Assembly (NCBI GenBank): GCA_947034885.2
Contig: OZ019759.1
Location: 3,412,501-3,476,500 of the forward strand
Length of the DNA: 64,000 nt
DNA from: Thuidium tamariscinum
Taxonomy: Eukaryota > Streptophyta > Bryopsida > Hypnales > Thuidiaceae
Direction: 5' to 3'
The notes beneath the pieces were generated by a model. That model saw nothing but the letters and a program-made list of their open reading frames with translations, had not been told where the DNA came from and did no database searches. Positions 21,990-64,000 of the stretch are shown here, in pieces. The position numbers were made by a program, and so were the translations under genes. Numbering within the stretch: the first letter of the stretch is position 1; every line of letters starts with the position of its first letter.

Positions 21990-21999
21990 TGTTAATATC

Positions 22000-38123: not shown

Positions 38124-38631
38124 GGCATCGAAATTGGTTCAAGAATTCTTGTTGTGGATCTGAAGAGCTGTTAATGTTGGTATATGATTCCATTTCTCCT
38201 AATGTGAATGGACTGTTTTAGAATTAAGATTTCGAGTTTATGACTATGTATTTTGACTACTAGCCATTCATTCACTGTCATCTATGTACATAGCAATTGT
38301 TGTGGCAAACCCATTCCCCCCTAAGAAGACATGCCAAATTCAGGCCTATAATACATTAAAATAGATTCACGTAGAAATTTCCAAATCATGTGGATGGCTG
38401 GAATTGTGTGTGCATTGTCAACACTCGTCGACTGACATTCAGTCATTAACGCGTGGAGTATTGTCGTGTTGCAGTCATTTAAAAGTGGAAGGAGCCATTT
38501 TCGAGTGGTTCTACAGTAACTTCAGACATTAGTGAGGAACCTTTTTCTTCAATCAGTCACTGAGGGCTTCCGCATTGTGTAGTCACACACGGACCCAACT
38601 CCGCCTAGAATAATCCTTAATCTCGGTAGAG

Positions 38632-44600: not shown

Positions 44601-47040
44601 TACCTCCTTTGGTTGCAAAATCACAAAATACTAAGACATTTTAAGGATTTAAAGTGAAAGTTAGGTTAAACATTGTCATGTGTACCTCCTTTTGCGAATA
44701 AAACTCTTAAAATACGATTCAACATTTTCACGGCAAAGCTTTGAACTTATAATACCCCAAAGTTATAAACTTAAGAAACCTTGAATTGGGAGTCAAAAGG
44801 GTTAAACACCAAGTGGGGTTATTTCCCATGCCCCGTTAAACATTGCCACATATTCTAGTATTAGAATTAAGGTGTGTTAAACCCAAAATTCAAAGGTACT
44901 TAAACCCAAAAAAATCAAAGTTGTGTGAGAGAGCCAGCCGCTGGGCAGACCAGAGCCAGCAACCGGCGGACCAGAGCCAGCAGCTGGGCGGAGGAGGCCA
45001 GAGGCCGAGCGGACCAAAGCCAGCGTGGCCGGGCGGACCAGGAGCCAGGGTGGCTGAGCGGAGAGAGCTAGTGGCCGGGTGGAGTGAGCCAGCAGGCTGG
45101 GCGGAGAGAGCCGGTCACTCACAAGTGAGATTTTGAAACACAAAAAATTGATTTTTAACAAAATCAAGGGTTGGCAGTTGGCGCCACAACCCCTTTTTTT
45201 TATTTCATTTGAAAATCTAAATCTTAGAGTTTCACATTTCTCACCAAAATATCAACACTCAAACTCCATAGCCGTCGTCTCTCTCATGAAACATTGCAAC
45301 AAAAACCAATTGAGGAAGAAAACTAGACTTGTGAAGAGATTAAGGCTCGGGGATTGCAAAACGGAAGGTATTAACATTATAAAATTAATATCCAAAGGAA
45401 CATTACTATTGAATAAGGTTCCTTATTCCTTGGAAGTTGACCTTTGGAATTAAATAACTATTTAAACGGAATCATACTATTGAGTTTTATTCTTGTTCTT
45501 TAGGAATGTTCTACATTCTTTGGTAGTTAGTTATTAATTAGATTCTTAGAAGGTTTGGATTTTGTTTGTTTTGTTTTATTAGGCCTAATAAGCCAAAAGG
45601 GAAACAAACAAATTGACAACTAATTTCTTTACAAATTAACGCAAATTTAAAAATTAATTAGATTTGAAAAGATTTGATGATAGTTTTCAATTAAAATATT
45701 CTAATAAACCAAAAAGAAACAAACAAAATTGACAACCAATTTCTTTAGAATTAAAATAATTTCAAAATTAATTGGATTTGAAAAGATTTGAAGGAAAATT
45801 CTCATCCAAATTAATTTAATTCAATTGGAATTCGTTGGAATATCAAATTAGAATTAAAATAAACAACAACAAGTAGGTAACTATTAGATTTCCGTCAATT
45901 TCTTTAGATTAGAACATTAACCCACTAGGTAGACTAATTAAATTGCAGTATTTTCCTAATTACCGAGGATTTAGGAATTAAAGGAATTACGCAATTAAAT
46001 TAACGCTATATAACATTTAGTTTCTTTTAAAAAAGGACAAAATTAATTGACCAACAACGTGAGAATTATTATGGATTAGATGGAGAGCCGGGATGATTTC
46101 GATGGCGAGGTTGTAGGAGAATATTTGCACATGATGATGTTTGACAACGGGACCATGGAGATTTACGCAGAGGAGGTAAATCGCCCACTTTTGATTTTCA
46201 TTCTCATCGTTTTACTGTTAAGTTTCTTTTTACCTAATGCTTGGAATTAGATTTAGGCAATATCATTTGATAAAATAGAATAGAGTAGGACCGCTTGGCT
46301 GACTTTCATAATAGAATAGATAAAAACTACAACCACAAATTAGATTAAAGAACACTTAAAAGACGTGACTAAAAGAGTTCATTGCTTGGAAGGCTTTCTT
46401 TTAACACCCAATTAGAAAGAAAACTCAATTAGACATAGGACCCATGTGAAAAACTCTTAGCTCAAGGGTGGAGTTAGGAGCGCTCACAGTAACCATTTCA
46501 GAATAGAAGATGACAGTACCCATACACTTAGTGAGTTACAATAGCGGTGTAGCTTCAATTTTTCAACAACGTTCGGGAGTAGCTGAGGAATCAAATGTCA
46601 ACTACGTGGGAGTCTTGAAGGACATACTAGAGTTGGATTACGGTGCATTCACGACTAAGATCATTTTATTGCGATTCAAGTGGGTGAAAAGCCAAGACAA
46701 TCAAGGTAATCCAACTTATACCAAAGACGAGTCGGGATTCCTCGTCGTAAACTTCCATCACAAATTGTCTCGCATGGCAGACCCGTTCATCTTTCCAAGT
46801 CAGGCCACCCAAGTATTTTTCTCGGATGTCATAGGTAAACCAGGATGGAAAGTGGTGTTATACAAACAAGCTAGAGCAAGACGTGAGGTTGTAGAGACGG
46901 CAGATGCATTCATTAGTACAACAGTAGAGACTGAAGGACTAAGAGCTCCACAGAGGATGCCAAGTCCTCCACCGACAGCAAACCTAGTAGGAGCCATAGA
47001 GTTATCTGAAGAAGATAATTTATTACATGAAGGCTACTAA
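38632..47040 (+). CDS. Outer TNP2-type CACTA transposase
   Basis: Exon 38632-40396 begins with a Transpos_assoc-like zinc motif (CPCTNCRGRKKLF, then REHLIRYG), then an acidic linker and the Transposase_21 core with candidate catalytic aspartates in LAADGVNPY and WTIHDFPGYG and a CPWCGED motif. The donor GTGAGT after YWK joins in phase to 40608 (ALLIRYTLDLMHCELN), opening the DUF4218 exon (40608-41506; SARWMYPVERYMKVLKNHVR). A DUF4216-like exon lies at 46510-47040 (VNYVGVLKDILELDY, KPGWKVVLYKQ). Near 39165, one extra T in a CCCCCTTTTT run shifts the frame; the protein aligns in different frames before and after. This may be a real lesion or a sequencing error. The intron present in the inner TNP2 after HVLMQQ is absent here. 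Between 41.5 and 46.5 kb the gene is interrupted by about 5 kb of AT-rich DNA. It is the less damaged of the two transposases. Confidence 0.8.
41507..46509. other. Long intron-like or inserted tract within outer TNP2
   Basis: A short coding-like exon may lie at about 41836-41910 (after TTTCAG), and another around 46080-46170. Most of the tract is AT-rich without recognised genes. A TATA-like GGGTATATAAGGGCC at about 44308 and TGGCGCCACAACC at about 45179, just after a ...CA end, resemble an LTR promoter and a tRNA-primer site, so a decayed LTR retroelement is possible. No paired LTR was found. GTCATGTGTACCTCCTTT occurs twice, near 44597 and 44676. Confidence 0.35.
44925..45115. repeat. GC-rich minisatellite, about 22-bp units
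   Basis: About eight imperfect units of the type GGGCGGACCAGAGCCAGCAG, very different in composition from the surrounding AT-rich DNA. Open frames on both strands here are by-products of the repeat. Confidence 0.75.
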
Positions 47041-48045
47041 TGCAGTCTGAATTAGGTAGTCAGAAACTAAGATTCCAGTGCATTGTATTTCATGAATTAG
47101 GAATTCGTTTCCTCATGCGTCAATCTGCCCATGCACAACATTTCATCAGAATTGGAATGGGAGGACCTAATTCTATTTGCACAACATCGGAATCGTAATT
47201 GGAGTCATTTTTCAGTAACGTTGTAGTCATATTATAGTCTCACTGTAGTCTCTTTCAGTCATAGTTTAGTTCCAAAGAAGCCACCATTCAGTCGCGACGT
47301 GTAAGTGTCATCCACTTCTGAAGTAGTGACCATGTGAATAGACCTGAAAGTATATAACTGTGCACAAAAAATTTCAATCTTTACCTCCACCACATATTCT
47401 AATTGCAGAGAACATACTAGTGCCATCATTTTGGACCTCTGTCATGACCATATTGTCATGTATTTGCAATTCGGGTTTCCGTAAGAGGCTTAGCATGTGG
47501 AAAAGTCCAATCCTATGTACATGAAGGTATACAACATAGCTTGGAAGGCACGTTAGACGAGCTTGAAGCTGCCAAATCCCTTAAGCGGTCGAAACCCATA
47601 CTTGCAATGCTCATATGTGTTCTGATCACATCATAAGTTCATAAAGAAAAATGCAGTCGCATTTTAGTAGCCTTGCAGTCATGATCTTCCACGTCAACAT
47701 ATAGTCCTGCCCAATCCCTGCCCGCAAAATGCAAACCAAGCAAATTTTTCATGTCCAGTCAATTCTCAGTCATTTTGAAGTACCTCCAAGTCATACCTAA
47801 TGACTAATGACTACTAGTGAATGACTGGATTATCCATGCAGGATGTGCCCTTCTCCCTGCAGCCTTGCAAATAACGGTACTAACAGAAAAACGTAGACTA
47901 CTGTTCTACATCCGTCAAGTCCTAAACCGCAAGTCGCAGGGACGACTGAAAAATGACTGGGACACTGCCTGAACCACAAGGCTGGTACAATTACAGAGGT
48001 AGTAGTCACGATACAGTCAAACCGGACATTGAGTCATTTCCTTGG
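47041..48045. repeat. Right subterminal region with AATGACT/AGTCATT array
   Basis: After the TNP2 3' end the region is non-coding. TGACT/AGTCA motifs occur at about 47205-47290 and densely at 47650-48060, including several exact AATGACT or AGTCATT. This mirrors the left subterminal array. Confidence 0.7.
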
Positions 48046-48075
48046 AGTCATTTATACCCCTGATTTTTTGTAGTG
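48046..48075 (-). repeat. Right terminal inverted repeat of outer CACTA
   Basis: The complement starts CACTACAAAAAATCAGGGG and continues to ATAAATGACT. Flanked on the right by TCA (48076-48078), the target duplication. Confidence 0.9.
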
Positions 48076-48078
48076 TCA

Positions 48079-50992
48079 ATCCCTTCTTTACATGTTCAAG
48101 ATCCTTCATCTTCTCTGGAACAAGAGGTCGAGGATTCCCACTCGACACTGTAGGAAGCCCATCTTCAGTCTCCGACCACAACCGAATCCCCTTGCCATCC
48201 TCTGGCAACCATTTTGGATCGTTACACAAATTTTTGTACTCCATCAAAGGCCATCTGTTTGGATCCATGAAAAGCTTGAATTGCTGGGCTCTAGAATGCC
48301 CCCCTAAAAAATCCCCTCCGGTGCCCAAGTATCCTTGTACAAATGCCTTGAAGTCAGGAACTTCCTCAATGAGATGAGGAATCACTGGGTGCGTTTCGCA
48401 ATCCATAAAAAGACTTCATGAGTCTTGGAAGTGTTGGATAGCTACTTGTCTTCAATCTCGAGCTCCAACGACCAAAAAGAGCATTGATGTCTTCGTGCGT
48501 ATGTCCTACAATGAGGAAATTAATATACACCTCACGAAAAATGCCCTTGCAGACAAGCATAGAGCAAAAAGCAAAAACATATCGGGGTGATTGCAAGAAA
48601 GGGCTGTACTATTTGGCGTCACAATCCAAGTGACTTTCATGCCATTGGCTATAACTTTTGGGGGAATTAAGTCAATGTACTTGAAATTTTTATTGAAGGT
48701 GGCCAACTTGATAGTAAAGAAATTCATTATTTTTCAAAATTTTCCAAAAAACATTTTCTAATTAAATTTTAATTTACCTAATTTGTCACACTTTGCAATT
48801 TAGGGGTTTTTAGTACTGTGGAGTATCCAAAATTAATGATGTAGACTTGAAATTTGTATGGTCTATTTATATACTAAAGATTTATAAGTTGACCAAAAAG
48901 ATTAAAAAAAAACATTATTGTATGTCCTCTACATTGATGCAAATAGGGGCCCCTTGCGCATAGAATTCTTAACATCAAAAAGGGTTTCAAAATAATTCTC
49001 TTGAAGAAATTTAATCATTATTAGTCCTTCTCAAATTGCCAATTTTTACTTTTTCTTAAAATGTCTTTTTCCTATTTTTTATAAATTATTACAAAAAAAA
49101 ATGCAAAAGTGCTCGTTTTCATGATATTTTGCACTTGTCTAGTTCACCTACTTAGAAAATTTTCCTTCACTTTTCCTTCATAGGGTACTTTCTTCTTCAA
49201 GAAATATACATCGAGCATATTTTTTATTTTTTTTTTAAATTGTTTTTCTATTTTTAAAGTACTCCCGAAAAAAAATGAGTACTATTTCAAAACGAGACAA
49301 AAAACGGGAGGCCTTTCTTGCAACCACCCATCGGTTCTTGTTGTCTCCTGAAGCATTGTCTAATTGCAATATTAACACAGGAGGAAGGGGTTTAGCTGGA
49401 AGGGGTTCTTCTGGAGGTGGGAGGAGGGAGTCTAAGCAAGTTTCTACTCCATTTAGAAGTGCTTTTGTCAATGTTGATTGGTCCCTCTCAATAGAAAATA
49501 ACAGGCGTGATGAATTCTTGGGCGCTCCTTCCAAATCACGCAATAATCTTGCAATTGATCCAATAGTATGATTTGAATCTATTGGATAAATACTTAATCC
49601 ATAGTGTGCATAGCGCACATCACCATGACCATGAGCAATTATACCAGTAACTGCTACAAGCATTTTCATGAAAGATTCTGTCACTTTGGTCTTGTGAAAG
49701 AAGTGTGGAGAAGTAGTCTTTGAATGATCCATCTTATCATGAATAATGCACAACATCGTCTTGGGTCGTAGTGTGGAAGTGCATCAATTGGAATAATAGT
49801 ATTCCCTATGAGCTTCTTGCCCTTCATTATGAGTTTTATAAAGATTGGTCCACTTCAATTTTGACTCAACACCCACACAAGCTTTCCTTAATTACTTGTA
49901 GGTGTCACACACTCCACACCTAGCGAAGGTGTCTCCATGTGCTTTTGCAGCATATTCTGGAAAAGAAGCACAACGAATGTTGCTCAAACCGCTTGAAGAT
50001 ATTGGTGGCAAATCCAACATTGCATTGGAAGCATTGATTTCTTCTAATTGCTTGTTCCAACGAAATGAAGATGGCAAAACCATTACAGTCACTTTCTCTC
50101 CAGACCCAAGTGTTCTAGTCTTGTGTGGCATCTGATCAGCATCCTACTCTATAAGAGTTCGAAGTGTGGCAGTAGCTTGAATAGTATGCTTGCGAGGCTT
50201 CTTGCTCCCCAAATTTCCATGAACCTCTGCTTGCTCCCCACTTTTTGCTTTCACTTTGTACCTATAGAATGTACACTTTGCAATCCCATGAATAATCCAC
50301 CAAGCAGTGGGGTACACCTCTCTACCTTTCAAAGTTATCCACTCTTTGCCTCTATTGTCTTTGTGAATCTACCTATGTACCTCTAGAAGTGTCTTGTTAC
50401 GAGCCTTGAAGTCATCCCCTCTATACAGTTCCGTCCGTATTGACTGAATTTGTGCACGTGGGAAAGGTTGCACACAATTCATCTCACCACATGTTTTAGT
50501 AGAAACTGCAGTGATTGACTCCATAGTCAGGAGAAGTTCTTTCTTAGGAAGAACCTCAGGATCAACCCTTTCATGAGTTGTTTCATATGAACGAACCCCC
50601 TTTTGAACTCTTTTGCTTAAGGGATTCATGGCCATGTTGTATATGTGCGTCTGATCGTGATCGTACAATGAGGCTCCGTCATAAAGAAACACTCTCTTGA
50701 TGTGCCAAGAGCGCAGCGACCACATGTTCCCAGAAGAGTAGAGCTCCTCGTTCAAAGACTCTGCAATCTGAATAGCAACTCGGTCGTCACCAAGTGACTT
50801 CCCGTTGTGGTCAACCACCAAATCAGGGTCAACGTTCTGACAAATTCCTCTGGCAATATCCACCCCGTCATTGTTCTGGAGGGTAACAAACTGCGACACC
50901 CATTTCTTACGAGGGATTCCCTCGCACAACCGAACATCATCTGGAAGCGTCGGAACTGGATTTGAAAATTCCTGAGGACTATGAAAATTCAT
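48079..50992 (-). pseudogene. X-A, N-terminal and central part (DUF7869-like, probably transposase-related)
   Basis: Minus-strand gene, one frame from ATG at 50992. In order: an N-terminal region (VSQFVTLQNNDGVDIARGI), a Cys motif (TKTCGEMNCVQPFPRAQI), YPTAWWIIHGIAKCTFYRYK, HDKMDHSKT, GHGDVRYAHYGLSIYPIDSN, LQLDNASGDNKNR, then after a 745-bp insertion YVFAFCSMLVCKGIFREV and FLIVGHTHEDINALFGRWS. The LQLDN...NKN and GHTHEDI motifs are those I associate with DUF7869; an RNase H/DDE-like nuclease fold is plausible, with the aspartates in LDN and HED as candidate catalytic residues. Four in-frame stops interrupt it: 50369 TAG, about 50144 TAG, 49892 TAA and 49784 TGA. A one-base insertion in a T-run near 48398 (LMKSF) shifts the frame. 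The CACTA element then cuts the gene. All four stops are one C-to-T change from CAG, CAA or CGA. Probably dead. Confidence 0.7.
48585..49329. mobile_element. 745-bp TIR element inserted in X-A, superfamily unknown
   Basis: The left end GGGTGATTGCAAGAAAGG and the complement of the right end GGGTGGTTGCAAGAAAGG differ at one of 18 positions. ATCG is duplicated at 48581-48584 and 49330-49333 (a fifth base G also fits). Removing the element plus one duplication restores ...DNKNR/YVFAF... in frame, matching the family. The inside is AT-rich and non-coding. A 4-5 bp duplication with GGGTG termini does not fit CACTA, hAT or typical MULE elements. Confidence 0.85.
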
Positions 50993-51025
50993 TCTGCCAA
51001 AACCAAGTAATATTATCAGGTTACG

Positions 51026-51950
51026 TATTATTGTACCGGTGATAAGATATTAGTCCAGAAAATCATAGAAATACAGAATTTTATAATTTATAAGCCATTC
51101 TTGGTCTTCCAGGAAAGATTGAAAGACCGGTCAATTAAAAAACTCTAGTAATAGAACAATCAAGAAGTGAGACTATTTGAACCCCCTCATAAATTATGAC
51201 AGCATCAGAAAGAAATTTCCATTATCACTGACTCGATGATAAAACAAGAAGGATCTTTATCAACTACATATCCGGCACAAGCATCAAGGACCTCAAACTC
51301 CTTGGAGTCGAGGATAGGACTACAAGGAATATAGTTATCACCGAGTCGATGATACGTAAACGACAGAAATTGAAGCACCATACTTGTACTCGAAAAACAG
51401 TTGAAATCAAGATAACCCTAATGAGTATGACATTCATAATATTGATTCCAAAATAAGTTTTATCGATAGAATATCACCAACTCGATGATACTTTGCAAAT
51501 CCTTTTGAATAATCCACTCCTTATTTTGTATACTAGGAGAAGATTCTTCACGAAAAACGAAATTAGGTGTTATACCCATCTCGTGAAAGACGGTACACAA
51601 ATAATGAGCACTCCCCTACATCAATCCACAAACCAGTATGGATCCAAAAAATAAGTTATCCTCGACTCGATGATAATCACTACTGACAATACCGGGATCA
51701 ACTTTTAGAGTAAACCATTATCCACTTAAGATCCTCACTCCAAATTGTGAGTTGGGTCACTCGAAATCAAGGCTAGTAATAATTTCAAAGAAGTACTCAA
51801 TTGATATAATTGGGTAAGGTATCATCGACACGACGATAAAAAACATTACTCTAAAATTGCAAAACCGCACAATATCCTTGAGTCGACGATACCTCACTAC
51901 CAACAGTGTTCCGTAAATTCCGCCGAGAAACTCGAGGATGGATGCAAACT
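51026..51950. promoter_or_regulatory. Left cluster of 19-bp near-palindromic sites, upstream of X-A
   Basis: 19-bp sites TATC-N11-GATA lie at 51026 (TATTATTGTACCGGTGATA), 51223, 51336, 51472, 51657 (TATCCTCGACTCGATGATA), 51820 and 51873; degenerate ones lie at 51298 and about 51930. Length is constant and the ends are nearly invariant. The cluster begins about 35 bp upstream of the X-A start codon. A protein-binding array is inferred; the candidate binder is X-B or X-A. Confidence 0.75.
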
Positions 51951-53037
51951 ACAAATCCTCAGACCCGTTTACCAGAAGCTGTTTTCCACTGTAAGAGTAC
52001 ACCCGTCACACTTACACACAAACACAACGTGATCGACTAGCACAGAAAACTGAACACATCAACAAACAATATCCATACTACGCACATAAGTGATTACCAA
52101 AGACCGCATACCTGCTAACGACCAAGGACAAATATAATGCCCTCGACTTAAGAACACTGCATTGTGTGCAAACATTCAAACACGCGGCCACAACACGAGA
52201 AAGAAAGACGAGAAAACGAAGAAGTAATTGAATTTGCAGTAAGGCCTTGCTTTGGCCTTGCAATTCACAGAGAAGGCGGGGAAAAGACCGCGTAATGGAT
52301 CTAATTTGAATTCTTCCTAAGTGCACGTCCTCCTACCTCCATAATTTCATGCAACTTCTCTGCACTTTTTGAGATGCCTTTTGTCAGCTTTAAGGCACCA
52401 AGTTTTGGAAATACTTTTTTTGAACCCTTACAGTAATCTACTATAAATGTTAGGCGTTGACTTCCGGAAGGTAGCTTTGGATTCTAGGACATTTCTAAAA
52501 ATTGTCACACTAAATGTGCTTTGTTGAGGCCTTCTAATGTGTCAAAAGACAATTTAGGCAACCCGGGTAGGATTTAGGGTCAACTTTGCAGGGGGGTTTT
52601 AGCTTCCAAGGTCACGGTTTAGGGTTTAGGGCTCTCAAAGTCAGGTTTAGGGTCATGTTTTGAGGGTTTCAGGGTTTCAGTTCAGGGTTAGGTTTTAGAA
52701 TTGGGGTTTACGGTGTGAGACATGCAGCTTCTATATGAGCTTTATGGTTTAAGCTCCAAAAATCATAATGCTTAAACCCTAAATTCCAATTCATGGAAAA
52801 AATAATGTTTATTAAGCTTTGAAGCTCAAGAAATATTAAAGTACTACTTCCATATGAGCTTTAGGGTAATTGATTTTTTTGTTTTTTGAAAACAAAGTTC
52901 AAGTTCATAATGAGAATCCACGCACAATACAAATGCACATTGTCTTGGTCCTAATAGCATCATAAGTTCTGGAGAGTAACCTCAAATGTCATGAATTGTA
53001 CAACTAAAAGATTCCCTAAAAAATAGGAAGAAAGTGG
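51951..53037. other. Non-coding DNA between X-A and X-B, with TTTAGGG words
   Basis: No recognised gene. A minus-strand open frame at 52326-52078 has no recognisable motif. Around 52560-52690 the plant telomere word TTTAGGG occurs several times, two in direct tandem, too few to call an interstitial telomere. Confidence 0.4.
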
Positions 53038-53069
53038 ATTGTCATAGAACATGAATGTTCTATGACAAT
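53038..53069. repeat. Perfect 15-bp inverted repeat
   Basis: ATTGTCATAGAACAT at 53038-53052, loop GA, then the exact complement at 53055-53069. The same TCATAGAAC...GTTCTATGA core recurs in each unit of the 175-bp array at 54.2-54.9 kb. Confidence 0.9.
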
Positions 53070-53602
53070 TTCCATGTGACACTTAGGAATTGCTAAATAA
53101 ATTCTCTATATGGTGGAAAACAAAAGAAACCCACAAAATAATGTTATAAACTATATGCATGAAGAAGCCCTACACCGAAAAAAATGAGCAAGCTTGTCGT
53201 TTTTTTCCCCATGAAACTAAAATTTCAACCTACATCATATATATTCTACAAGTTCTCAACTTGAAGACAATTTTTGAGCCTTTCGTTATCGTGTACTGCA
53301 GTACATTTGGGACCTTGGTGTTTTGAAAAGGAAATAGCAAGCTTGCCATTTTCTTTTGCAAGACTTAGAAAATGAGCTTTTCATATGTGTGATATGGAAA
53401 TTGTTATAAATCATCAAATCCATGTTAACTTTCATGAGAACCCACCCTAAACCCTATGTTTAGGACGCTTTTGTCCTTATAATTCAAAACATTTGTGGTT
53501 GAGGCACATTTCTAAAAACAGGGCAAGAGATGCTCTTTCTGGTGTAATGCAAACGGAATTTGAATTGTCTTTGCAGGAAAATGAATTTCATTCTTTATAA
53601 TG

Positions 53603-53945
53603 AATGTGCTCATCTCATTCTAGCACAGAAGGAATAATTATGTATATAAAATGTTTTATGTTTTATGTTCTTTTTCATCTCATGTAGTAAGTGAATGTAT
53701 ATATGTATATGTATAGATGTATGTATGTATGTATACATATAATGTTTTTTGCACTGAATGTGCTCATCTCATTCTAACACAAAAGGAATCTGTATACAAA
53801 ATGTTTAATGTTTTTTTCATCTCATGTAGTAACTGAATGTATATATGTGGATATATATATATATATATATATGTATACATATTTATTTATTTATTTATAC
53901 ATATATGTATATATATATTTATACATATATGTAATGTTTTCTGCA
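53603..53945. repeat. About 150-bp duplication with TATG/TATA microsatellites
   Basis: GAATGTGCTCATCTCATTCT occurs near 53603 and 53757, and TTTTCATCTCATGTAGTAA follows in both copies. Each copy runs into ATGTATATATG-type simple repeats (53695-53745 and 53838-53935). Confidence 0.8.
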
Positions 53946-54235
53946 ATGGATGTTGAAGAGTGTAAGTTCTTTTTTTTAAGAACCCTAAAGAATTCAATAT
54001 TCATTGTACTTCGTATTAAAGAGATTTAACTAAAGCATTTCATTCTAATTGTTAGTAGATTTAAGTGAAAATGGAAAAGATTGAATCAAATTTAATGAAT
54101 TCGCGAATTACATACATATCATTCTTCTGAAATGAAAATATTTAATCCAAAAACGGAAGACAAGTTACTATTGCTTCACGCATGCTTTCTTATAAATCTT
54201 GAAGACTGTTATAGGAATTCCATGTAAATACAACA

Positions 54236-54905
54236 ATGGAGAAGTTGCAATGCCATAGAACATTCATTTTCTATGACAAAATTCCAACCCAAACTTGGAA
54301 TTATGTATTTTTTGTTGGATTCCAAGAAATAGTCTACCTTCCAATGTGTTTTTTTTTTTTCTGATTGGCCCGTAGACTTGAATTTCAACGTAAAGAGGGG
54401 CCAAAAAAAATATGGAGAAGTTGGAATGTCATAGAACTTTGATGTTCTATGACAAATTTCCATTCCCAACTTGAAATTTTTTGTTTTTTCTTGAATTCCA
54501 AAATATAGGCTACCCTGCCATTGTTTGGCTTTCTTTCATAGTGGCCCTTAGACTTGAAATTCAATGTAAAGAGGGCCAAAAAAAATATGGAGAAGTTGGA
54601 ATGTCATAGAACTTTGATGTTCTATGACAAATTTCCATTCCCAACTTGAAATTATTTGTTTTTTCTTGAATTCAAAAAAATAGGCTACCTTGCCATTGTT
54701 TGGCTTTCTTTCATAGTGGCCCTTAGATTTGAAATTCAATGTAAAGAGGGGCCAAAAAGAATATGGATAAGTTGGAATGTCATAGAACTTTGATGTTCTA
54801 TGACGAAATTCCAATCCAAACTTGGAATTATGTATTTTTTGTTGGATTCCCAAAAATAGGCTATCCTGCCATTGTTTGTGTTTAAGGTAAACAGTCCATA
54901 GACAT
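54236..54905. repeat. 175-bp tandem array, about four copies
   Basis: Units begin with ATGGAGAAGTTG(G)AATG at 54236, 54412, 54587 and 54763 (ATGGATAAG in the last). Each has an inverted repeat TCATAGAAC...GTTCTATGA near its start and ends with GAGGGGCCAAAAA-type sequence. Minus-strand open frames here are repeat artefacts. Confidence 0.88.
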
Positions 54906-55126
54906 GAAAATGAACGTGTAGGTGGACCAAAGTAAAATTTTTGGTGCTTAGTCATTTTTTTTCCTAATTTTGAATGTGTGCCAGTGTTGGTTTTATTTGA
55001 AAATTCCGTAGAGCCTTTTAATGTTGAGTATTTCATTCATTCGATATATTTTGATTGGATCAACTTCGTATTAAACATTGGACTTCAGCATATAAGTTTT
55101 TTTTTTTTATTCAACGATTTTACTGG

Positions 55127-55687
55127 ATCTATTTTAATAATTGGGGTAGTTCAATTTCCAAAATCTTTTGAATTTGGATCCATTTTAATAATTGGGGTAG
55201 TTCAATTTTCAAAATCTTTTGAAACTGGATCCATTTTAATAATTGGGGTAGTTCAATTTCCGAAATCTTTTGAATTTGGATCCATTTTAATAATTGGGGT
55301 AGTTCAATTTTCAAAATCTTTTGAAACTGGATCCATTTTAATAATTGGGGTAGTTCAATTTCCAAAATCTTTTGAATTTGGATCCATTTTAATAATTGGG
55401 GTAGTTCAATTTTCAAAATCTTTTGAAACTGGATCCATTTTAATAATTGGGGTAGTTCAATTTCCAAAATCTTTTGAATTTGGATCCATTTTAATAATTG
55501 GGGTAGTTCAATTTTCAAAATCTTTTGAAACTGGATCCATTTTAATAATTGGGGTAGTTCAATTTCCAAAATCTTTTGAATTTGGATCCATTTTAATAAT
55601 TGGGGTAGTTCAATTTTCAAAATCTTTTGAAACTGGATCCATTTTAATAATTGGGGTAGTTCAATTTCCAAAATCTTTTGAAACCTA
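55127..55687. repeat. 51-bp satellite, 11 monomers in a 102-bp higher-order pattern
   Basis: The monomer begins GGATCCATTTTAATAATTGG. Alternating variants (TTTCCAAAATC...GAATTT and TTTTCAAAATC...GAAACT) form 102-bp dimers, about 5.5 of them, nearly identical. 51 is a multiple of three, so both strands stay open and give spurious repetitive proteins. Confidence 0.93.
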
Positions 55688-56489
55688 AATCAAAATGAAG
55701 GTCTTATTTGTCAAATTGTGACAAAATAGTCATTTTTTGGTAATACAGGCTTCATAGACAGTCACTTTCAAGTAATATGGATCGCTTAATTCATAGACAC
55801 TTCCAAGTTATATGAATGATGAAGTAATATGAATCTTATTTATTCTTTATATTTTGAAAATCTATGAAATATATTATTGCAAGTAATAAATTGGAACACA
55901 AATTTATAGTCGACCATGAAGTTCACTTCATTCTGTACTAACTACTAAGTAAGGTCTTCAAATCATAGTATTGTAACTAATTCGAAGTGTATAGATAAAA
56001 TTTTCAAAGAAGTATAGTTTTTACTATCAACAATTGGAGGAGAGAAAAGAATGATGTTAATTTTTGGAATTGAGGTTTTGAACAAGCGTACTTCGCTACA
56101 TGGAGATTGACTTTCCATTTTGTTTAGAGGTCTTGAAAATTGTTTTCAAAAACTCTAAATGGATGAAAAAATATCACCATCCAAATCCATGTTCTTTAAA
56201 TTGTAGACTACATTTTAAGAAGCTACAAATTAACTAGGATTATGCCTTAAAGGCCCTTTGACTTCATATTAAATTCGATAGTAACTAACTTCTTGGATTT
56301 CTCTTAAAAAACAAGTTAGGAAGACTGCACATTACTTTTTGAGGTTGAACACCCTCCTTGTTCGACATTATAATTTGTCACTCCATCAATGATATTGTGC
56401 ACTCTCTAAGATGTCGAAATCTATGTGTCAATTTTGTAAAAACAGAATCCCAAAATTCGCACGTTCTTAAACTTGTACAATTGCTTAGA
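55688..56489. other. AT-rich non-coding DNA
   Basis: No gene, motif cluster or clear repeat seen in this stretch. Confidence 0.5.
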
Positions 56490-56770
56490 TGTGGAAATAG
56501 GTGTGTAAATTATAAAAATAAAATGTAGAATAAGAAACAAAATGTAGGTTCGGTAGCAAGTTGTGAAAATAGTTGTCTAAATTAGAAAACAAACAACAAA
56601 ATGTAGGCTCGATAGCAAGTTGTGAAAATAGGTGTGTAAATTAAAAAACAAACAAACAAACAAAAAACAAAAAACAACATGAAGGCTTGGTAGTAGGTTG
56701 TGATAATAGGTGTGTAAATTAAAAAAACAATCACAAAAACAAAAAAACTAATTGTACGCTCGGTAGCAAG
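56490..56770. repeat. Irregular 60-77-bp tandem repeat
   Basis: Units share GGCTCGGTAGCAAGTTGTGA and AATAGGTGTGTAAATTA; unit positions are about 56546, 56606, 56683 and 56758. They are separated by A-rich CAAACAAA runs. Confidence 0.75.
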
Positions 56771-56788
56771 TTTAGGGTTTATGGCGGT

Positions 56789-56938
56789 GGCTTGGGGGAG
56801 GCTCGGGGAAGGCTCGGGGGAGGCTCGAGGGAGGCTCGGGGAAGGCTCCTCAGGCTTGAGCATGTGGCGGCGGCTCGAGGGAGGCTCGGGCATGCGCAGG
56901 GAGGCTCGGCGGAGGCTCGAGGGAGGATCGGGGACGAG
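56789..56938 (+). repeat. G-rich 11-bp minisatellite
   Basis: About a dozen imperfect units of GGAGGCTCGGG, with purine-rich strand bias. Open frames on both strands arise from the repeat. Confidence 0.8.
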
Positions 56939-57289
56939 GCCGTGCTCTGGGAGTTCATCTCCCTCGTCGGGAGGTTCACCTTGGCTTCTATTGTCGTCAG
57001 GAGGTTGCTTGTGTTGTCGTGAGGAGGTTTGTTTTGTGTTGTTGTTGGGAGGTTAGTCTATGCTTTGTGGTCGCCTACTTATGATCGTGTTGTCACTGAG
57101 TTTTGCCTTTTCCATCTGCATTGAGAGTTGCTGTGAAATCGCGATCTTCTTCAGCGGACGTGGGAGTTCTTGGAGCAATTGCGTTCGTGGAGGCACGCAG
57201 AGGTGGAGGCGCACGTAGGCGGAGGCACATGGAGGTGAAGGCACGTGGAGGCTCAATTGAAGTTCTCAGGGTTTCACAAGTGTGCCGCC

Positions 57290-57420
57290 GCAACGGACAG
57301 TTCGCGGAGCCTCCAATGAGAGTGAATTTCATTTTCTACTTCGTGGTTGTCGCTGTAGCGGACAGTTCGTGGAGCCTCCGGTGAGAGTGAATTTTATTTT
57401 CTGCTTCGTGGTTGCTGCAG
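57290..57420. repeat. 66-bp direct duplication
   Basis: CGGACAGTTCGCGGAGCCTC near 57293 is repeated as CGGACAGTTCGTGGAGCCTC near 57359, followed in both by GAGAGTGAATTT and CTTCGTGGTTG. A looser duplication with CTCATGTTCTTG and TTTGCATTCAGTTTGTGG follows at about 57600-57780. Confidence 0.75.
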
Positions 57421-58046
57421 TTGCTCTGCGGTGAATGCCGCATTGGCTGCCTGCCTTTTTTTCTTTCAATAATCAGAGACGGACTCCACTCAGTACTTCC
57501 GTTGGTGAGGGTTTATGATTCAGGGTCCTCCATTTCTTGTCGCCTTCATCTGGTTTTGGTGGTTTAGGGTTAAGGTTTTACCGCCTTGCGTGGATTTCTT
57601 CTCATGTTCTTGTTTGACTTGGTCTTATACAGCTTTGCATTCAGTTTGTGGGTAATGCTTTGAGTTCAATTTGTGGGTACTAGTTTGAATTCAGTTTGGT
57701 TAAGGGTTCAGTGGATTCCATTGATTTCATCTCATGTTCTTGCTTGAATTGGTATGCTTATTGCTTTGCATTCAGTTTGTGGTTACTGCAGGGTGGAATT
57801 CAAAGATTTGGAGCGCTCGAATTTTAAGTTCTAAAGTAATTTTGGAGTCATCGAAGAATAGGTTAGTTTTGCTCATGAATTGAAATGTCAAGGTGACTTT
57901 GCCAGTCCGTGGAATGTGGTGTGAGGTTTAGGGTTTAGGCATGCACTAAATATGGGTTCAGGTACTACACCTTCAAATTCCTTTTCAATTTTAAAGCAAA
58001 TGAAGAGGCATCATTGAAATTAGGGTTTTGAGAAAGGTGTTGGACC
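57421..58046. other. Non-coding DNA upstream of the right site cluster
   Basis: No gene recognised. It contains the looser duplication noted near 57600-57780. Confidence 0.4.
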
Positions 58047-61000
58047 TATCGTCGGCCCGGTGATAGTAGGGCAAGCCATTTATTTTGGTAGAATTAGGGT
58101 TGAGAAGCACATAGAGATGTTATCCTCGTTCCGGTGATATCACGATGTCATGCTCAGGACTTGCATGCTTGTAGATAAGTATCCTCGATACGATGATAAG
58201 AAAAGATTTTGATAAATTTTAACTACGTGACAAAGAAATTGTAGATAAGTATCCTCGATACGATGATAAGAAAAGATTTCGATAAATTTTAACTATGTGA
58301 CAAAGAAATATGCTATTTTGAGTTACCTACATTAAACATCTGATGCCATAATGAATTAATTCCCACTATTATAAGAATTTCAGTGCTCATGCCCTTATCA
58401 TCGACTCGAGGATAAACGGTTAGTGATTCAGGCAAAATAGAGAAACACAAGAACATTGTCAGAAAACGTCAGAAAACGTGACTTTTCGTTGTGATGCCGG
58501 AGATAAATGAAATCAACTAACCTTAGTGAGTCTCCTAATCAGTAGTTCTGACTAACACAATAAAATATGGAGAGCAACCATAGGAACCAGACGGTTATCA
58601 CAACCCAAGAAATTAACCCTCTTAAGGATTTAGGTTTGCCTACTATTGATAGCTGATAAACATCTTCATTGAGTTATCGTCGTGTCGAGGATAAGTGCTT
58701 CCCCATGACTAAGGTGGGTTTGAGAGCACCTTCTGTGTTATAAGTAATTAAAACCTTTCTATCATCCTGACAGCAAAATACTAGTAGTGTCAAATAAAGT
58801 ACTTCTTTCAGTTTTGTGAGGAAACTGCCTCTATCTTCTTTTTGTAGAAAAACAAAAAAATCATTATCAATGAATACAAAATTCACCGTCAAAAATGATT
58901 AGCATATCTATCATAATATTCTGCTTGTTCTTCAAATTCTTATTTTGATGCATAGTCATGGTGTTTATTTACGACTGTCCTATATCATCGAGTCGATGAT
59001 ACCAAAATCTAACCATTGTCCGTTATGGTAATAGAGGAAAAGAACAATGGAGCAAACGGACACGTACAACTATTCCTTAACATCTCACCACCTAAAACCG
59101 TTCATTAAACCTTTTAATGATGAACCCTTCATCATAGAAATGGAGGACATATATGGGACGTTGTGGGAGTTCAGGGAGCATATTCATAGTTATATGGAGT
59201 TTCGGTGTAAACCGATTTAAAAACTATGTGTACCTGTATTACAGAGTTCAAGGGACAAATACGTATATGCCCTGGAATCTGAAAGAAAAAGTGACACTAA
59301 TTGAGGAGCACCAGAGGGACTACATTTTGATTGTGCTGCAAGAGGTGGACAACAGTGGAAGACCAAAAGAGCACTGCCACTCCATTGTGCTGAACGTGAA
59401 CTCCTATCATGGAAAATTTGATCTCTCCACTCTGATGACATTCTTGGAGGGTTCGCAAATAGAATCACTGAATGACCAGTTTGAAAAAGCTGGATACGTG
59501 CTTTGGAAGAACAGCACCGCTAGATCAAACGCAACAAGATTGCGCCTCATTTTCCAGACGCTTGATCGGTACGCACTAGAGCACGTCGAGAAAGAACCTG
59601 TAGTGGGTCGTCCTGCCGACCACTCGCAAGGTCGTCGTCAGGGAAGCGACAGCCCTGCCTCTCTATCATTCACTGGAACAGGGTCAGGGAGTAGACCACG
59701 AAAGCCTGGACAAACAAGGTCCAAGCCTAAAAAGAGAGATCCTCCTGGACCTACACAGGGAGAGTCTACCAGAAAGAGGAAGAGAAGCCTGACCAGTGCA
59801 CCTGCTATTGGAGGTAGTGCTGGTTCTGTTTTGACTATAGTGTCCGTTGCTTTGTCATCAACTGCGGAGGAGGTCCCTGAGCATGAGAAGTTTGCTTTAA
59901 TCTAGAGAACTTTCTGGGCAGGGCACCAAAAATGCTTTCTCTTTGATCAAGAGACCGTTAAGATCGACATCAAACAATGCATTATAGCCAGTCCTCAATA
60001 TGTCATTCGCACCTTACAGAGGGACATTGTGGATGCTGTGAAGAAGGAGCTCGTCCAACTGATAGATGTGAATCAACGGCAGAAAGTCTGCGTAACACTA
60101 GTGAACAAGAAAAAACTTTTGAAAAGGAATCCTGAATCATGGGACGAAATCAAGAACGAGAAGTTCATGATTATCAACGGACAGCACAGCATTACAGCTT
60201 CGCAGGAGCTACAAATTTCTGGCTGTGGAGAAGCAAGGAAAGTGGAACTCAAGACGTGGGACGCATACATTGTTTGGATTCTTGATGAAAACAAGTTGCG
60301 CAATATATCCAAGTACTATAATTGCACAAACCACTTGGACCACGCCCAACCAACTTGGGGGAACCAAATCGTAAGTTGTCGGAGAATTTGGATCACCTAC
60401 AAGCGTCCCACGGATGTGCGCACGGAAGACTTCTCGAAGAAGAATAAGGCAGTATTCGAGCTGACAAAGTACAAGGTATAGTGCCATCCAGAACCCATAT
60501 TGTCGACTCGATGATAAGCTGGCTTCTGTGTTTTGTTACCGTGAAATGTTATTTCAATTCTATTTCTTCGTCAGTGATTTTCTCCATGTTTCACATTTGA
60601 GTCACAGTTAACGTATCACCGCATCGAGGATAAAGTCCTAGTTTGTTTAAAATGTTTCATGCAACTTATGATGCTATGCAATTTTTGTAGAGCTTCACGG
60701 ATGTTGTAATCGAGGGCTTTCAAAACATAAATCTTGAGAGAGACGGCGCTCTTATCAGTGGCACCTCCAATCTGAAAAATGAAATTCAGATCATCACCCT
60801 GCTCGACAATCTTTGGGTGCATTGGGAGTCTTTCCTGACGAAGTACTCCAAGGGCGACTTAATTGACCCGTACACCTTGGAGCCTTACAAAGCAGCAAAA
60901 GGATTCAAGATTAATAGCATGTCCTTTAAGAGGGAGTTCTTCAAGCACTTCGGGCATTTTACGGACGTGGACTTCGGAGTGAACGCGGTGCATCTGCTCA

Positions 61001-63583
61001 ATAAAACACCTGGTCGTCTAGCAATTTATCCGAAGGTGTCAGTGACCGCAACCAAAGTTCTCGTGCCTAACAACATGACCCACAAGGAGTGGGGGGAGCG
61101 GAGGAAGCGCAAGAAAATTGTGCTCCAAGATTTAATGGCCATGAACCCCGATTTGAAGGTCATAGATAATGGTGGCGATGTTATCGACGGTACTTGGAAG
61201 TCCTGGAAGGCAAGGCACAGATTCACATCGGCCTCGTGGGATTTCCTTCTGACGCATCCAAGAGCGGATTATTTCAAGCGTCGTCTCCGCAACAATGCTT
61301 GGTTGAAACGGGCAAAAGACCTCGAGAAGCAATTTCCCGAGGTACTTTTCATGTTCACCAGGTTCATGAAGTTGAAATATCAACTTCCTCAACTGGAAGG
61401 AGGTGTTCAGATTAGGGGGATTGATGTTGGCGCTCAAGCTCTCGTGACGAGCTTGACATACAAGTATCATTCCCGGGAGGTGAACTTCGCGCTGGTGGAT
61501 TTCAGAGAAGCTCCGTGAGTCAAACCCTCCGAAGATGAATACGCCATCGACCCTTTTTTGAACTTCCTTTCATTGAATTTGAAGTCGAAGATGACAACGT
61601 CGAACATGTGGCTCTTCATCTTGAAGGGAAACAACAACGTCAAGGCAGCAACAGCCTTCGCAGCTTTGAAACTCCAGGATTTTGAGTGCGTGCCGTCTAC
61701 GTATGTCCTAGGAAGAGTAGAGCTCTTAGACAACGTGACAAATCGCACGGCAACTCCAGATGTCCAATTGCTCTTCTTGTTCAAGAAGAACAACGACTTT
61801 GCGTCCGCTAGTCGTGTGTTGGTGAAGAGTAGGTACTCTACTCCCGTACAGAACATGTACTATTGGGACTGGAATAAGAACACGGAGGCCAAGTGGCGGA
61901 TAGAGCCTTCCGAATTGCGCATGGAGTTCTACTTGGACATGCTCTGTGATTTCTCGAAACTAGACGAGAACGTCTTGGGTATTTTTGTGGGAGCGAAGTT
62001 CATGCTTGTTGCAAAGGTAAGTAAAGGACACCTCTGAACTAAGTATCCTCGACTCGAGGATACTTGTCTTTCATTCAAACAATTTCTTGAATGACATGGG
62101 CCTTTGTTATCCTCGACTCGAGGATAATGTAAGGTATTTCTGTTGTTGTGTTTTCTCTATTAATTTGGAGAAGACTCTTTTCAACTGTAAACTAATTCAA
62201 CATTATATTGTGTAATGATGGACAGATGTTTGGAGCTTTTTTTTACGAGTTTGTGGAGAAGTTAGATGTGAAAGCATACCAGGCGATTTCATATCTTGCC
62301 AAGAAGATGGACAAGAACGACTTCATGATGACGAACTCTCCGTACTCGATGCTATACGAGAAACCCCCTACCCGTAGCCTCATCATCATTAGTTCCGAAT
62401 CGCCTGATTCACCTCCTCTAAATTTTCGGTCGTCGGCTGCGGAAGCTCGTCCTCTCCCCCAACAAAGAGAGAATGTCGGTCCACACTTGACAACAAATCC
62501 AGGTGTGCAGGGACTAGATGAGTTTGGAACGAACATGTTCCAAATGTATCTATGGATGGCAAACGTGGATGTGGTTGCAAAAGTTGCACTGACCGCCGTC
62601 CAGGAGTCGGCTCAACCGGAGTTGGAGTTGGTTGAAGTCCAAACGACACCAGAAGCTCCCCCTGCCACTACTGCTGCAGCAGCAAAGACTGAATCTGATT
62701 CAGATTCTGAGGATGACGATGACGACGGCATGGAGACAGACACTGAGTTCGAGAGAACAAGAGCTCAGCGTGCGGAGGAAGAGAAAGATGATGAGGATCC
62801 TCTAGACTTCGGCGCGCGGGAGGACAGTTTCATGAGAGGGGGTTCTGCCAATGACGATGTCATCATGCAGGAAGTGGGACAGGATGATGGACAGACGGAG
62901 GGCCGATCATATCAATTACCTCTAGCGGATGTTGTCGACAAAGACGGGAAGCCAGTCTTTTATGACTTTGGCAGTGACGATGATCCACTCGATCATCCTC
63001 ACGAGTCCGACGACGATGATGAGGATCACGACGGCCCCCCGAAGGTGACAAAGTTGAAACCACTACTTTGGCATGGTGGGAAAGTGATGAAGGTGGAGAA
63101 AGACCATTGGAAAGAGGAGGAGGAAAAGAGGGACAAAAGAATCTCTCGGAATTTGGAGCGGGAAGCGAAGGACAGAGCACTCGCGGAATCGAATGCGAAA
63201 CTCATCGAGGTGACGCAGCAATCCCAGCAGAAGATGTCTGCGCTTTCCAGCGAAGTAGAAGAGTTGAGACGATTGGTGCAAATCCAACTTAGTCAGAGAG
63301 CTCTAGTAGAGAACGTGCTCCCATTGCCTTTGCCTTCAGAGCAGACTGTTCTTGTTCCTCCCCGAGTCCAAGAGCTAGTCTCTGGACTCCCGGATCCTCG
63401 ACTCGAGGATACCCATCGTGTGGTGTCCTTGGCACACGATGATCAATGTGGTGGAATGCACCCTGGCATCACAAGTGAGTCTTATTGTGCACTCTCCGGA
63501 TGAGAGTGCATTTGAAGTGTCCTTCCCTCAATGGTGAGGACCTGCGCAAGAAGATGCACGAGATTATCGTCGCGTCGACGATA
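58047..63583. promoter_or_regulatory. Right cluster of 19-bp near-palindromic sites, around and inside X-B
   Basis: Thirteen 19-bp sites. Upstream: 58047, 58121, 58180, 58250, 58396, 58675, 58983. Intron 1: 60498 and 60614. Intron 2: 62044 and 62108, both exactly TATCCTCGACTCGAGGATA. Inside exons: 63393 (GATCCTCGACTCGAGGATA) and 63565 (TATCGTCGCGTCGACGATA). Length never varies. TAT(C/T) and GATA ends and a TCG-N3-CG centre are conserved, while the middle and position 5/15 bases vary. Likely protein-binding sites. Confidence 0.82.
58171..58310 (+). repeat. 70-bp tandem duplication carrying a 19-bp site
   Basis: GTAGATAAGTATCCTCGATA and the following 50 bp appear twice (58171 and 58241), so one 19-bp site was copied by local duplication. 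Confidence 0.9.
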
Positions 63584-63831
63584 TCCTAGAGAGTGCTGCC
63601 GAAGCACCATCCAAGTCAGAGACAGCACATGTCTGCCAAGTCTCAGAGCAGGAGCAAGTCACCGTGGAAATGTCCTCTCCTGTGGACGAAGAAGAGAGAT
63701 TGGACTATGGGGAGGATGACCCTGAGGACAACGTTCCAGAGGAAGGCAAAGTGCAGGCTCTTGCCACGGCGTTGGAGGAACAAGCGGCATTGGAAGAGCA
63801 GACGGCGCCTCAGGCAATTGAATCTACATAG
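59047..63831 (+). pseudogene. X-B: ParB/DGQHR-like plus degenerate beta-class DNA methyltransferase-like protein
   Basis: Four exons: 59047-60475, 60691-62016, 62226-63474 and 63539-63831. All three GT-AG introns keep phase (YK/SFTD; MLVAK/MFGAFF; IT-R-PAQED). Start at 59047 (MEQTDTYNYSLTSHH); one surplus T near 59216 shifts into the main frame. Exon 1 ends in a ParB/sulfiredoxin- or DGQHR-like segment: FMIINGQHSITASQEL, then NKLRNISKYYNCTNH and WGNQIVSCRRIW. Exons 2-3 follow beta-class DNA methyltransferase order: FALVDFREAP where DPPY is expected, then EPSELRMEFYLDMLCDFS, VLGIFVGAKFMLVAK (motif I, FxGxG read as FVGAK) and MFGAFFYEF. Both motifs are degenerate, so activity is unlikely. Exon 3 continues with acidic runs and a coiled coil (SALSSEVEELRRLVQIQLSQ). 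In-frame TAG at 59903 and TGA at 61516 fit CAG/CGA decay. Role is inferred: binding the 19-bp sites or DNA. Confidence 0.6.
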
Positions 63832-64000
63832 GTAACATTTTATAGCCCTTATGACTTCGACTGACTTAATAAAACTTGAAGTCATGTGATTCTCTTGTAA
63901 GAGGTAGCAAATGGGTTCCGACTCTCATTTGTATTTATGATGTCTGACAAGAGGGGGTCGCCACTCTTTAATTACCTGGCGCTGACGGAGAATCCGTCTG
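63832..64000. other. Downstream DNA at window end
   Basis: No gene seen. AGAGGGGGTCGCCACTC near 63950 resembles the phrase near 3402. The right end of element X is not visible. Confidence 0.35.

What the first reader, a model, noticed from the sequence alone, without database searches (positions are those of the whole stretch)
59047..63831. A plant-type gene that appears to fuse a ParB/DGQHR-like segment to a degenerate beta-class DNA methyltransferase
Seen: NGQHSITAS with a downstream Asn/Trp-rich helix region, then DFREAP, an EPSEL...VLGIFVGAK block and MFGAFFYEF, in the order expected of beta-class N4/N6 methyltransferases (DPPY before FxGxG). Known: ParB-like N-termini fused to such methyltransferases are common in bacterial phages and integrative elements. 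Inference: a prokaryote-derived ParB-methyltransferase was captured by a eukaryotic element, gained introns and lost catalytic residues, perhaps becoming a DNA-binding protein. It is not contamination, because three phase-consistent introns are present. A bacterial N4C methyltransferase captured by bdelloid rotifers is a precedent.
Basis: partly seen in the sequence, partly recalled or inferred. Interest (0 to 1): 0.9.

Follow-up and report, generated by a model that had tools for sequence, protein, structure and literature searches.

The report
Transposon protein with dead DNA methyltransferase
A damaged copy of a repeated, probably transposon-borne gene in a plant-like genome encodes a protein shaped like a bacterial DNA methyltransferase that seems to have lost its working parts, and a palindrome shared with many relatives lies around and inside the gene, which suggests that the element may recognise its own DNA.

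Summary

New here: a 19-bp palindrome, TATCNTCGANNCGANGATA, occurs 19 times in the window, only around this gene and a divergent DUF7869 gene. It recurs in an independent contig (5 sites) and in intron-derived tails of 30 of 128 homologous ORFs; 22 of 23 first read-outs in two frames lie 12-36 nt after the 5' splice site. I infer a transposon accessory protein that binds its own element's palindromes, working like VANC anti-silencing proteins or as an autoregulator; binding is not shown. Transposon-borne ParB-methyltransferases are reported in algae (PMC12477816), so this is a new variant of a known kind.

The parts
48020..51049 (-). Decayed gene with DUF7869 domain, transcribed away from the ParB/methyltransferase-like gene; probable transposase or partner of the same element (inferred)
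   Evidence: PF25273 E 2.2e-12 in 49238-49783; further fragments down to 48020; palindromes lie just upstream of it and around the other gene
51223..51891 (.). Cluster of 6 palindrome sites upstream of the DUF7869 gene
58047..59001 (.). Cluster of 7 palindrome sites upstream of the ParB/methyltransferase-like gene
59047..60475 (+). Exon 1 (frameshift near 59190; in-frame TAG 59903-59905)
   Evidence: homologues P0001-P0004, P0085-P0128
60176..60202 (+). NGQHSITAS, ParB/DGQHR-like loop
   Evidence: nearly invariant in alignment A4; in the top-scoring windows against phage ParB GGHMRLKAA, not significant by shuffles
60476..60690 (+). Intron 1, phase 0, with palindromes at 60498 (+22 from donor) and 60614
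   Evidence: boundaries shared by homologues
60691..62016 (+). Exon 2 (in-frame TGA 61516-61518): mostly helical N-terminal part, then methyltransferase fold
   Evidence: 80 homologues; model pLDDT 89.5
61396..62016 (+). Beta-class DNA methyltransferase fold, catalytic motifs replaced (model residues 236-442)
61498..61515 (+). DFREAP at the motif IV (DPPY) position (position inferred from the strand that ends there); D-x-R-x-x-P conserved in the family
61969..62013 (+). Motif I position: NVLGIFVGAKFMLVA, conserved Lys in place of the last Gly
62017..62225 (+). Intron 2, phase 0, with palindromes at 62044 (+27 from donor) and 62108
   Evidence: donor boundary shared by homologues; acceptor not checked against homologues
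62226..63474 (+). Exon 3: its start (MFGAFFYEF...) probably completes the methyltransferase fold (inferred), then an acidic low-complexity tail; palindrome at 63393
   Evidence: 3' boundary not confirmed
63565..63583 (.). Last palindrome site, in the presumed exon 4 ORF (63538-63831)

Best explanation
This is a decayed copy of an accessory gene of a plant-type DNA transposon. Its intact relatives encode a protein with an N-terminal ParB-like domain (probable) and a C-terminal beta-class DNA methyltransferase fold that has lost its catalytic motifs. I infer that the protein binds the element's own 19-bp palindrome as a symmetric dimer, at sites upstream of both element genes and inside its introns. 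Bound there it would control or protect the element's expression: either by keeping host silencing off, as VANC proteins do for VANDAL transposons, or by autoregulation near the 5' splice sites. Shown: the fold, the replacement of motifs, the palindromes, their recurrence in relatives and their spacing to splice donors. Inferred: ParB identity, membership of one transposon with the DUF7869 gene, DNA binding, dimerisation, and the regulatory outcome.
For: Fold. No [DNSE]PP[YFWL] near the motif IV place (residues 255-290) in 68 members; conserved replacements there D (67 of 68) and R (61 of 68); at motif I Lys in 52 of 53, never Gly. Palindromes: 24 strand matches against 0.04 expected; 19 sites, none in 1-51222 or 51892-58046. 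Independent contig L245 (CADCWO010000074.1; 102 of 188 aligned residues of the NGQHS domain identical): 4 sites without mismatch to the pattern upstream, 1 in intron 1, none in coding sequence. Read-outs in 30 of 128 homologous ORFs, shuffled mean 0.4, maximum 2 of 200 shuffles; 35 of 36 read-outs lie outside the aligned exons; 22 of 23 first read-outs in frames 0 and 1 lie 12-36 nt after the donor, 7.6 expected if uniform along the tail. Arms stay complementary (wobble pairs counted) at the variable position in 23 of 27, reached by 0 of 10000 permutations. Repetitive: clusters of up to 700 member sequences. Selection: window against L245, 188 aligned codons, differences by codon position 63/57/115. 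[quoted passage not shown] VANC motifs in introns and non-coding parts of VANDAL (PMC5735166, passages read).
Against: No binding data. ParB homology is not significant by profile score (local 22 of 60, global 48 of 60 shuffles; 173 of 1000), and the exon 1 model failed (pLDDT 33). Structure matches have low global scores (Foldseek TM up to about 0.5 by target length, identity 8-15 percent) and sequence profiles barely see the methyltransferase (local 1 of 60, global 12 of 60 shuffles; the top window is out of register and motif I comes behind it; full exon 2 82 of 1000). The read-out patterns were written after I had seen several tails, and the 12-36 nt span was chosen. Frame-1 read-outs alone are complementary in only 4 of 8, and many upstream window sites do not match at positions 5 and 15. 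A role in splicing or as RNA hairpins is not excluded. The DUF7869 gene is linked to this gene only by the palindromes in one window, with about 6 kb between the two clusters. Element ends were not found. The host genome could not be searched.
Confidence: 0.55

Rival explanations
1. The palindromes act in RNA: as hairpins just after the 5' splice sites they control splicing of the element's own transcript, with or without the encoded protein binding them.
For: First site 12-36 nt after the donor in 22 of 23 ORFs with a frame-0 or frame-1 read-out; window +22 and +27, L245 +21. Window intron 2 folds at z -4.7 and L245 intron 1 at z -2.6, window intron 1 only at z -1.3. Arms covary in 23 of 27.
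Against: The same palindromes lie in clusters upstream of both genes (13 of 19 sites in the window, 4 of 5 in L245), and two upstream L245 sites fold as strongly as the introns (z -4.0, -4.4). Many upstream window sites are not complementary at positions 5 and 15. A symmetric DNA site would also keep its arms alike.
Confidence: 0.2
2. The protein is still an active methyltransferase with unusual motifs, marking the element's DNA.
For: Beta-class fold with an Asp kept at the motif IV place (67 of 68); the Ectocarpus protein of this kind is described as predicted to make N4C or N6A (PMC12477816).
Against: No PPY-type motif in 68 members and Lys for the last motif-I Gly in 52 of 53 members that cover the site.
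Confidence: 0.08
3. A host gene family, not a transposon gene; the palindromes are regulatory sites of that family.
For: Strong protein conservation and intron positions shared by distant members; no element ends found.
Against: Repetitive clusters (up to 700 members), a decayed copy near CACTA elements, and a DUF7869 gene sharing the palindromes.
Confidence: 0.12
4. The NGQHS region is not ParB-like but an unrelated domain that happens to share a short motif (bears only on this part of the best explanation).
For: No ParB_N hit in 49 members; profile score not above shuffles.
Against: The best local hhalign segment and the best of about 92,000 ungapped windows against 46 phage fusions both fall on the ParB GxHR loop, in register, and the domain order matches those fusions.
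Confidence: 0.3

Closest known systems
ParB + N4/N6 methyltransferase accessory gene of Sola1-1_Ec32 (Ectocarpus) and similar genes of green and red algal transposons (PMC12477816, passages read; its refs Iyer 2011 and Petroll 2025 not read)
   Same: Beta-class methyltransferase fold with a probable ParB-like part; neighbour gene on the opposite strand; probably a eukaryotic element
   Different: Here the catalytic motifs are replaced; the partner gene is DUF7869; palindromes near splice donors; sequence not compared with the algal proteins
Phage ParB-methyltransferase fusions (for example phages T280 and TPWB-09; Pfam PF02195 + PF01555 above cut-off)
   Same: Order of domains; fold of the methyltransferase; best-matching local segments in register
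   Different: The phage consensus has DPPYG and FLGSGST; this family has neither, and has introns and a long exon 1 N-terminus; sequence similarity is at or near chance level
VANC anti-silencing proteins of Arabidopsis VANDAL transposons (PMC5735166, passages read)
   Same: Element-encoded protein with motif clusters in the element's own introns and non-coding parts (here clusters seen, binding inferred)
   Different: VANC21 motif is a 9-base repeat in one orientation, not a palindrome; protein homology was not tested
Bdelloid rotifer N4C methyltransferase (PDB 8s9o)
   Different: PDB title calls it a DNA cytosine-N4 methyltransferase; this family has lost the motifs

Membership tests
Beta-class DNA amino-methyltransferase | Methyltransferase fold with motif IV before motif I | tested here: met
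Beta-class DNA amino-methyltransferase | Catalytic [DNS]PP[YFW] | tested here: not met
   0 of 68 members in residues 255-290
Beta-class DNA amino-methyltransferase | SAM-binding FxGxG-type motif I | tested here: not met
   First Gly kept in 50 of 52; last Gly position is Lys in 52 of 53, Glu in 1
Beta-class DNA amino-methyltransferase | Pfam N6_N4_Mtase match | tested here: not met
   Not among the 11 families matched by any of 27 members at E up to 1
ParB/sulfiredoxin superfamily | Pfam ParB_N match | tested here: not met
   Not among the 14 families matched by any of 49 members at E up to 1
ParB/sulfiredoxin superfamily | G-x-H/R loop in a ParB-like profile | tested here: inconclusive
   In register but not above shuffles
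ParB/sulfiredoxin superfamily | ParB fold | tested here: inconclusive
   Model of exon 1 homologue P0003 pLDDT 33
Algal transposon ParB-methyltransferase accessory genes | Lies in an element, opposite strand to its transposase | tested here: inconclusive
   Divergent DUF7869 gene shares the palindromes; transposase identity and element ends not shown
Algal transposon ParB-methyltransferase accessory genes | Sequence homology to the Ectocarpus protein | not tested
VANC-type anti-silencing system | Repeated motif in the element's introns and non-coding parts | tested here: met
VANC-type anti-silencing system | Encoded protein binds the motif and lowers DNA methylation | not testable with these tools
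   needs an experiment

The most novel reading that the evidence does not exclude
A transposon family has turned a captured prokaryotic ParB-methyltransferase into a catalytically dead reader of its own palindrome, and has placed that palindrome at a near-fixed distance behind its splice donors and upstream of its genes, so that one protein senses and tunes transcription, splicing or silencing of every copy.
Probability: 0.35. Interest if true: 0.88.

Novelty: new variant of a known kind. Interest (0 to 1): 0.72.

Why it matters
Why transposons carry prokaryotic DNA-methylation genes is open. This family seems to separate binding from catalysis: the enzyme looks dead but the fold is kept, and a specific palindrome travels with it. 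That makes self-recognition by a transposon directly testable in a host with intact copies, and it would add to VANC another element-encoded protein with a DNA motif of its own.

Tried and rejected
Family libraries gave nothing useful for the pieces: Pfam, PHROGs (one member met a phage methyltransferase family at E 0.17, and only 25 of 36 families were shown), NCBIfam. Sequence-profile searches of solved structures gave only chance matches. The exon 1 model was made from 5 sequences and failed; the second and last structure job had gone to exon 2, so the larger alignment A4 (49 rows) could not be folded. tblastn of P0118 in phage records found no relative (best E 7). The IMG/VR scans with P0005 and with one exact form of the palindrome found nothing. 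In the paper library, no paper holds three 15-17 letter forms of the palindrome or DUF7869, and the capped listings (15 of 55; 9 of 9; 15 of 538; 12 of 82) showed no land-plant ParB-methyltransferase element; I read passages only, and most subscription papers are not held. Considered and rejected: bacterial contamination of the window (introns, plant-type CACTA genes around); an active enzyme (motifs). The idea that covarying arms prove an RNA hairpin was rejected, because symmetric DNA sites give the same pattern. A search for inverted 12-mers between 44000-52100 and 57500-64000 gave mainly the palindromes themselves and no clear ends.

Limits: the 128 homologues are unnamed clusters, many partial. 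Of ORFs with tails of at least 10 residues, 13 of 31 for exon 1 and 16 of 30 for exon 2 show a read-out; the rest do not. One read-out (P0002, residue 27) lies near the N-terminus, outside the tails. Read-outs see only the part of an intron before the first in-frame stop; frame-2 read-outs (5 of 6 at 22-28 nt, 1 at 61) must end in a stop and were left out of the spacing test. The read-out patterns and the 12-36 nt span were set after I had seen some of the data. The 46 phage sequences came from 242 ORFs picked by length and a PPY motif, with duplicates between scans; only L001-L005 of them were checked for domains. L245 sits in a cyanobacterial bin and is probably plant contamination there (my inference).

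Full report
What was checked. The gene runs 59047-63474 or further. Exon 1 ends at 60475, intron 1 is 60476-60690, exon 2 is 60691-62016, intron 2 is 62017-62225 and exon 3 opens at 62226; both introns are phase 0. Homologous ORFs stop matching at the same two donors, and exon-2 ORFs begin matching at the intron 1 acceptor. The acceptor of intron 2 and the third intron were not checked against homologues. The copy is decayed: TAG at 59903, TGA at 61516, and a frameshift near 59190.

Family. Exon 2 has 80 homologues at 25 to 68 percent identity, none with a precomputed Pfam domain. The NGQHS part has 48 listed members including the query P0003. Some clusters hold tens to hundreds of member sequences (up to 700), as expected of a repeated element. 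Sources are unnamed and I could not name the host. The window also holds CACTA tnp2 genes with Transpos_assoc, DUF4218 and DUF4216 domains, which I recall as plant-type.

Catalysis. Of 68 members that cover motif IV, none has [DNSE]PP[YFWL] in residues 255-290; Asp is kept in 67 and Arg two residues on in 61. At motif I the first Gly is kept in 50 of 52, and the last-Gly position (register) is Lys in 52 of 53 and Glu in 1. The replacements are themselves conserved, which argues for a kept, non-enzymatic job rather than simple decay. Between the window and contig L245, 188 aligned codons of the NGQHS domain differ at positions 1, 2 and 3 in 63, 57 and 115 cases, a pattern that fits purifying selection.

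ParB. I collected 242 ORFs with a PPY motif from loci of phage ParB-methyltransferase fusions, 46 after thinning. The best local hhalign segment of the NGQHS domain falls on the ParB GxHR loop, P 0.17; 22 of 60 column shuffles score as high, and 48 of 60 in global mode. In an ungapped window test the same register is the top of about 92,000 windows, yet 173 of 1000 shuffles reach its score. For the methyltransferase part the local hhalign segment is motif I in register and 1 of 60 shuffles reach it (12 of 60 in global mode). In the window test its top window is out of register, reached by 11 of 1000 shuffles, and the motif I register comes third; for the whole of exon 2 it is 82 of 1000. So ParB is plausible by place and order, not proven, and the methyltransferase rests on structure.

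Palindromes. ATCCTCGACTCGAGGAT with up to 3 mismatches matches 24 times on the two strands, 0.04 expected. With the pattern TATCNTCGANNCGANGATA and up to 3 mismatches there are 19 sites: 6 at 51223-51891, 7 at 58047-59001, 2 in intron 1, 2 in intron 2, 1 in exon 3 and 1 at 63565; five block shuffles of the window gave 0, 1, 1, 0 and 2. The first cluster lies just upstream of a decayed DUF7869 gene on the other strand, so the two genes are divergent and share the motif. L245, a 4235-base contig from a cyanobacterial bin, encodes an uninterrupted exon 1 and part of exon 2, and has four sites without mismatch to the pattern upstream and one in intron 1, none in coding sequence.

Recurrence in relatives. 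The homologues are known as proteins only, but many ORFs run into the introns. Reading the palindrome in three frames, 30 of 128 ORFs hold it against 0.4 on average in 200 residue shuffles, and 35 of 36 read-outs are outside the aligned exons. The patterns were written after I had seen several such tails. The first read-out in frames 0 and 1 lies 12-36 nt after the splice donor in 22 of 23 cases, 7.6 expected if uniform along the tail (span chosen); the window sites are at +22 and +27, L245 at +21. The variable position on the two arms stays complementary, wobble counted, in 23 of 27 read-outs, 0 of 10000 permutations reaching that: 19 of 19 in frame 0 but only 4 of 8 in frame 1. Upstream window sites often do not match there.

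Mechanism. I favour a self-recognition protein: the element's own protein binds palindromes at its promoters and introns. The closest working model is VANC in Arabidopsis VANDAL elements, whose motifs also sit in the element's introns and upstream regions (PMC5735166, passages read). The near-fixed spacing behind splice donors could mean control of splicing or early elongation. As RNA, window intron 2 and L245 intron 1 fold better than shuffles (z -4.7, -2.6), window intron 1 hardly (z -1.3), and two upstream L245 sites fold well too (z -4.0, -4.4). The DNA and RNA readings are not separated by my data.

Known or new. [quoted passage not shown] the two cited works were not read). So the kind is known. 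What I did not see in print, in the listings, is the dead-enzyme family, its DUF7869 neighbour and its palindrome.

Noticed in passing
38614-41507, 46507-47037 and 18557-22067: Two CACTA-type elements with Transposase_21 (tnp2) and DUF4218 domains; the first also has Transpos_assoc above its cut-off, and a DUF4216 ORF that may belong to it (inferred).
   Followed up: partly
7283-8977: ORF with an NLI-interacting-factor-like phosphatase domain (PF03031, E 1.8e-9), possibly a gene fragment carried by an element.
   Followed up: no
55122-55684: 102-bp tandem array, 5.5 copies at 99 percent, open in frame on both strands.
   Followed up: no
52590-52700: Degenerate TTTAGGG-like repeats (seen), resembling plant telomere sequence (recalled).
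   Followed up: no
L245:1-4235: A relative of this gene sits in a contig filed under an uncultured Synechococcales genome bin (CADCWO010000074.1), probably contamination of that bin.
   Followed up: partly
60498, 62044 and homologous introns: Palindromes keep a nearly constant distance of 12-36 nt to 5' splice sites in both introns; reason unknown.
   Followed up: partly
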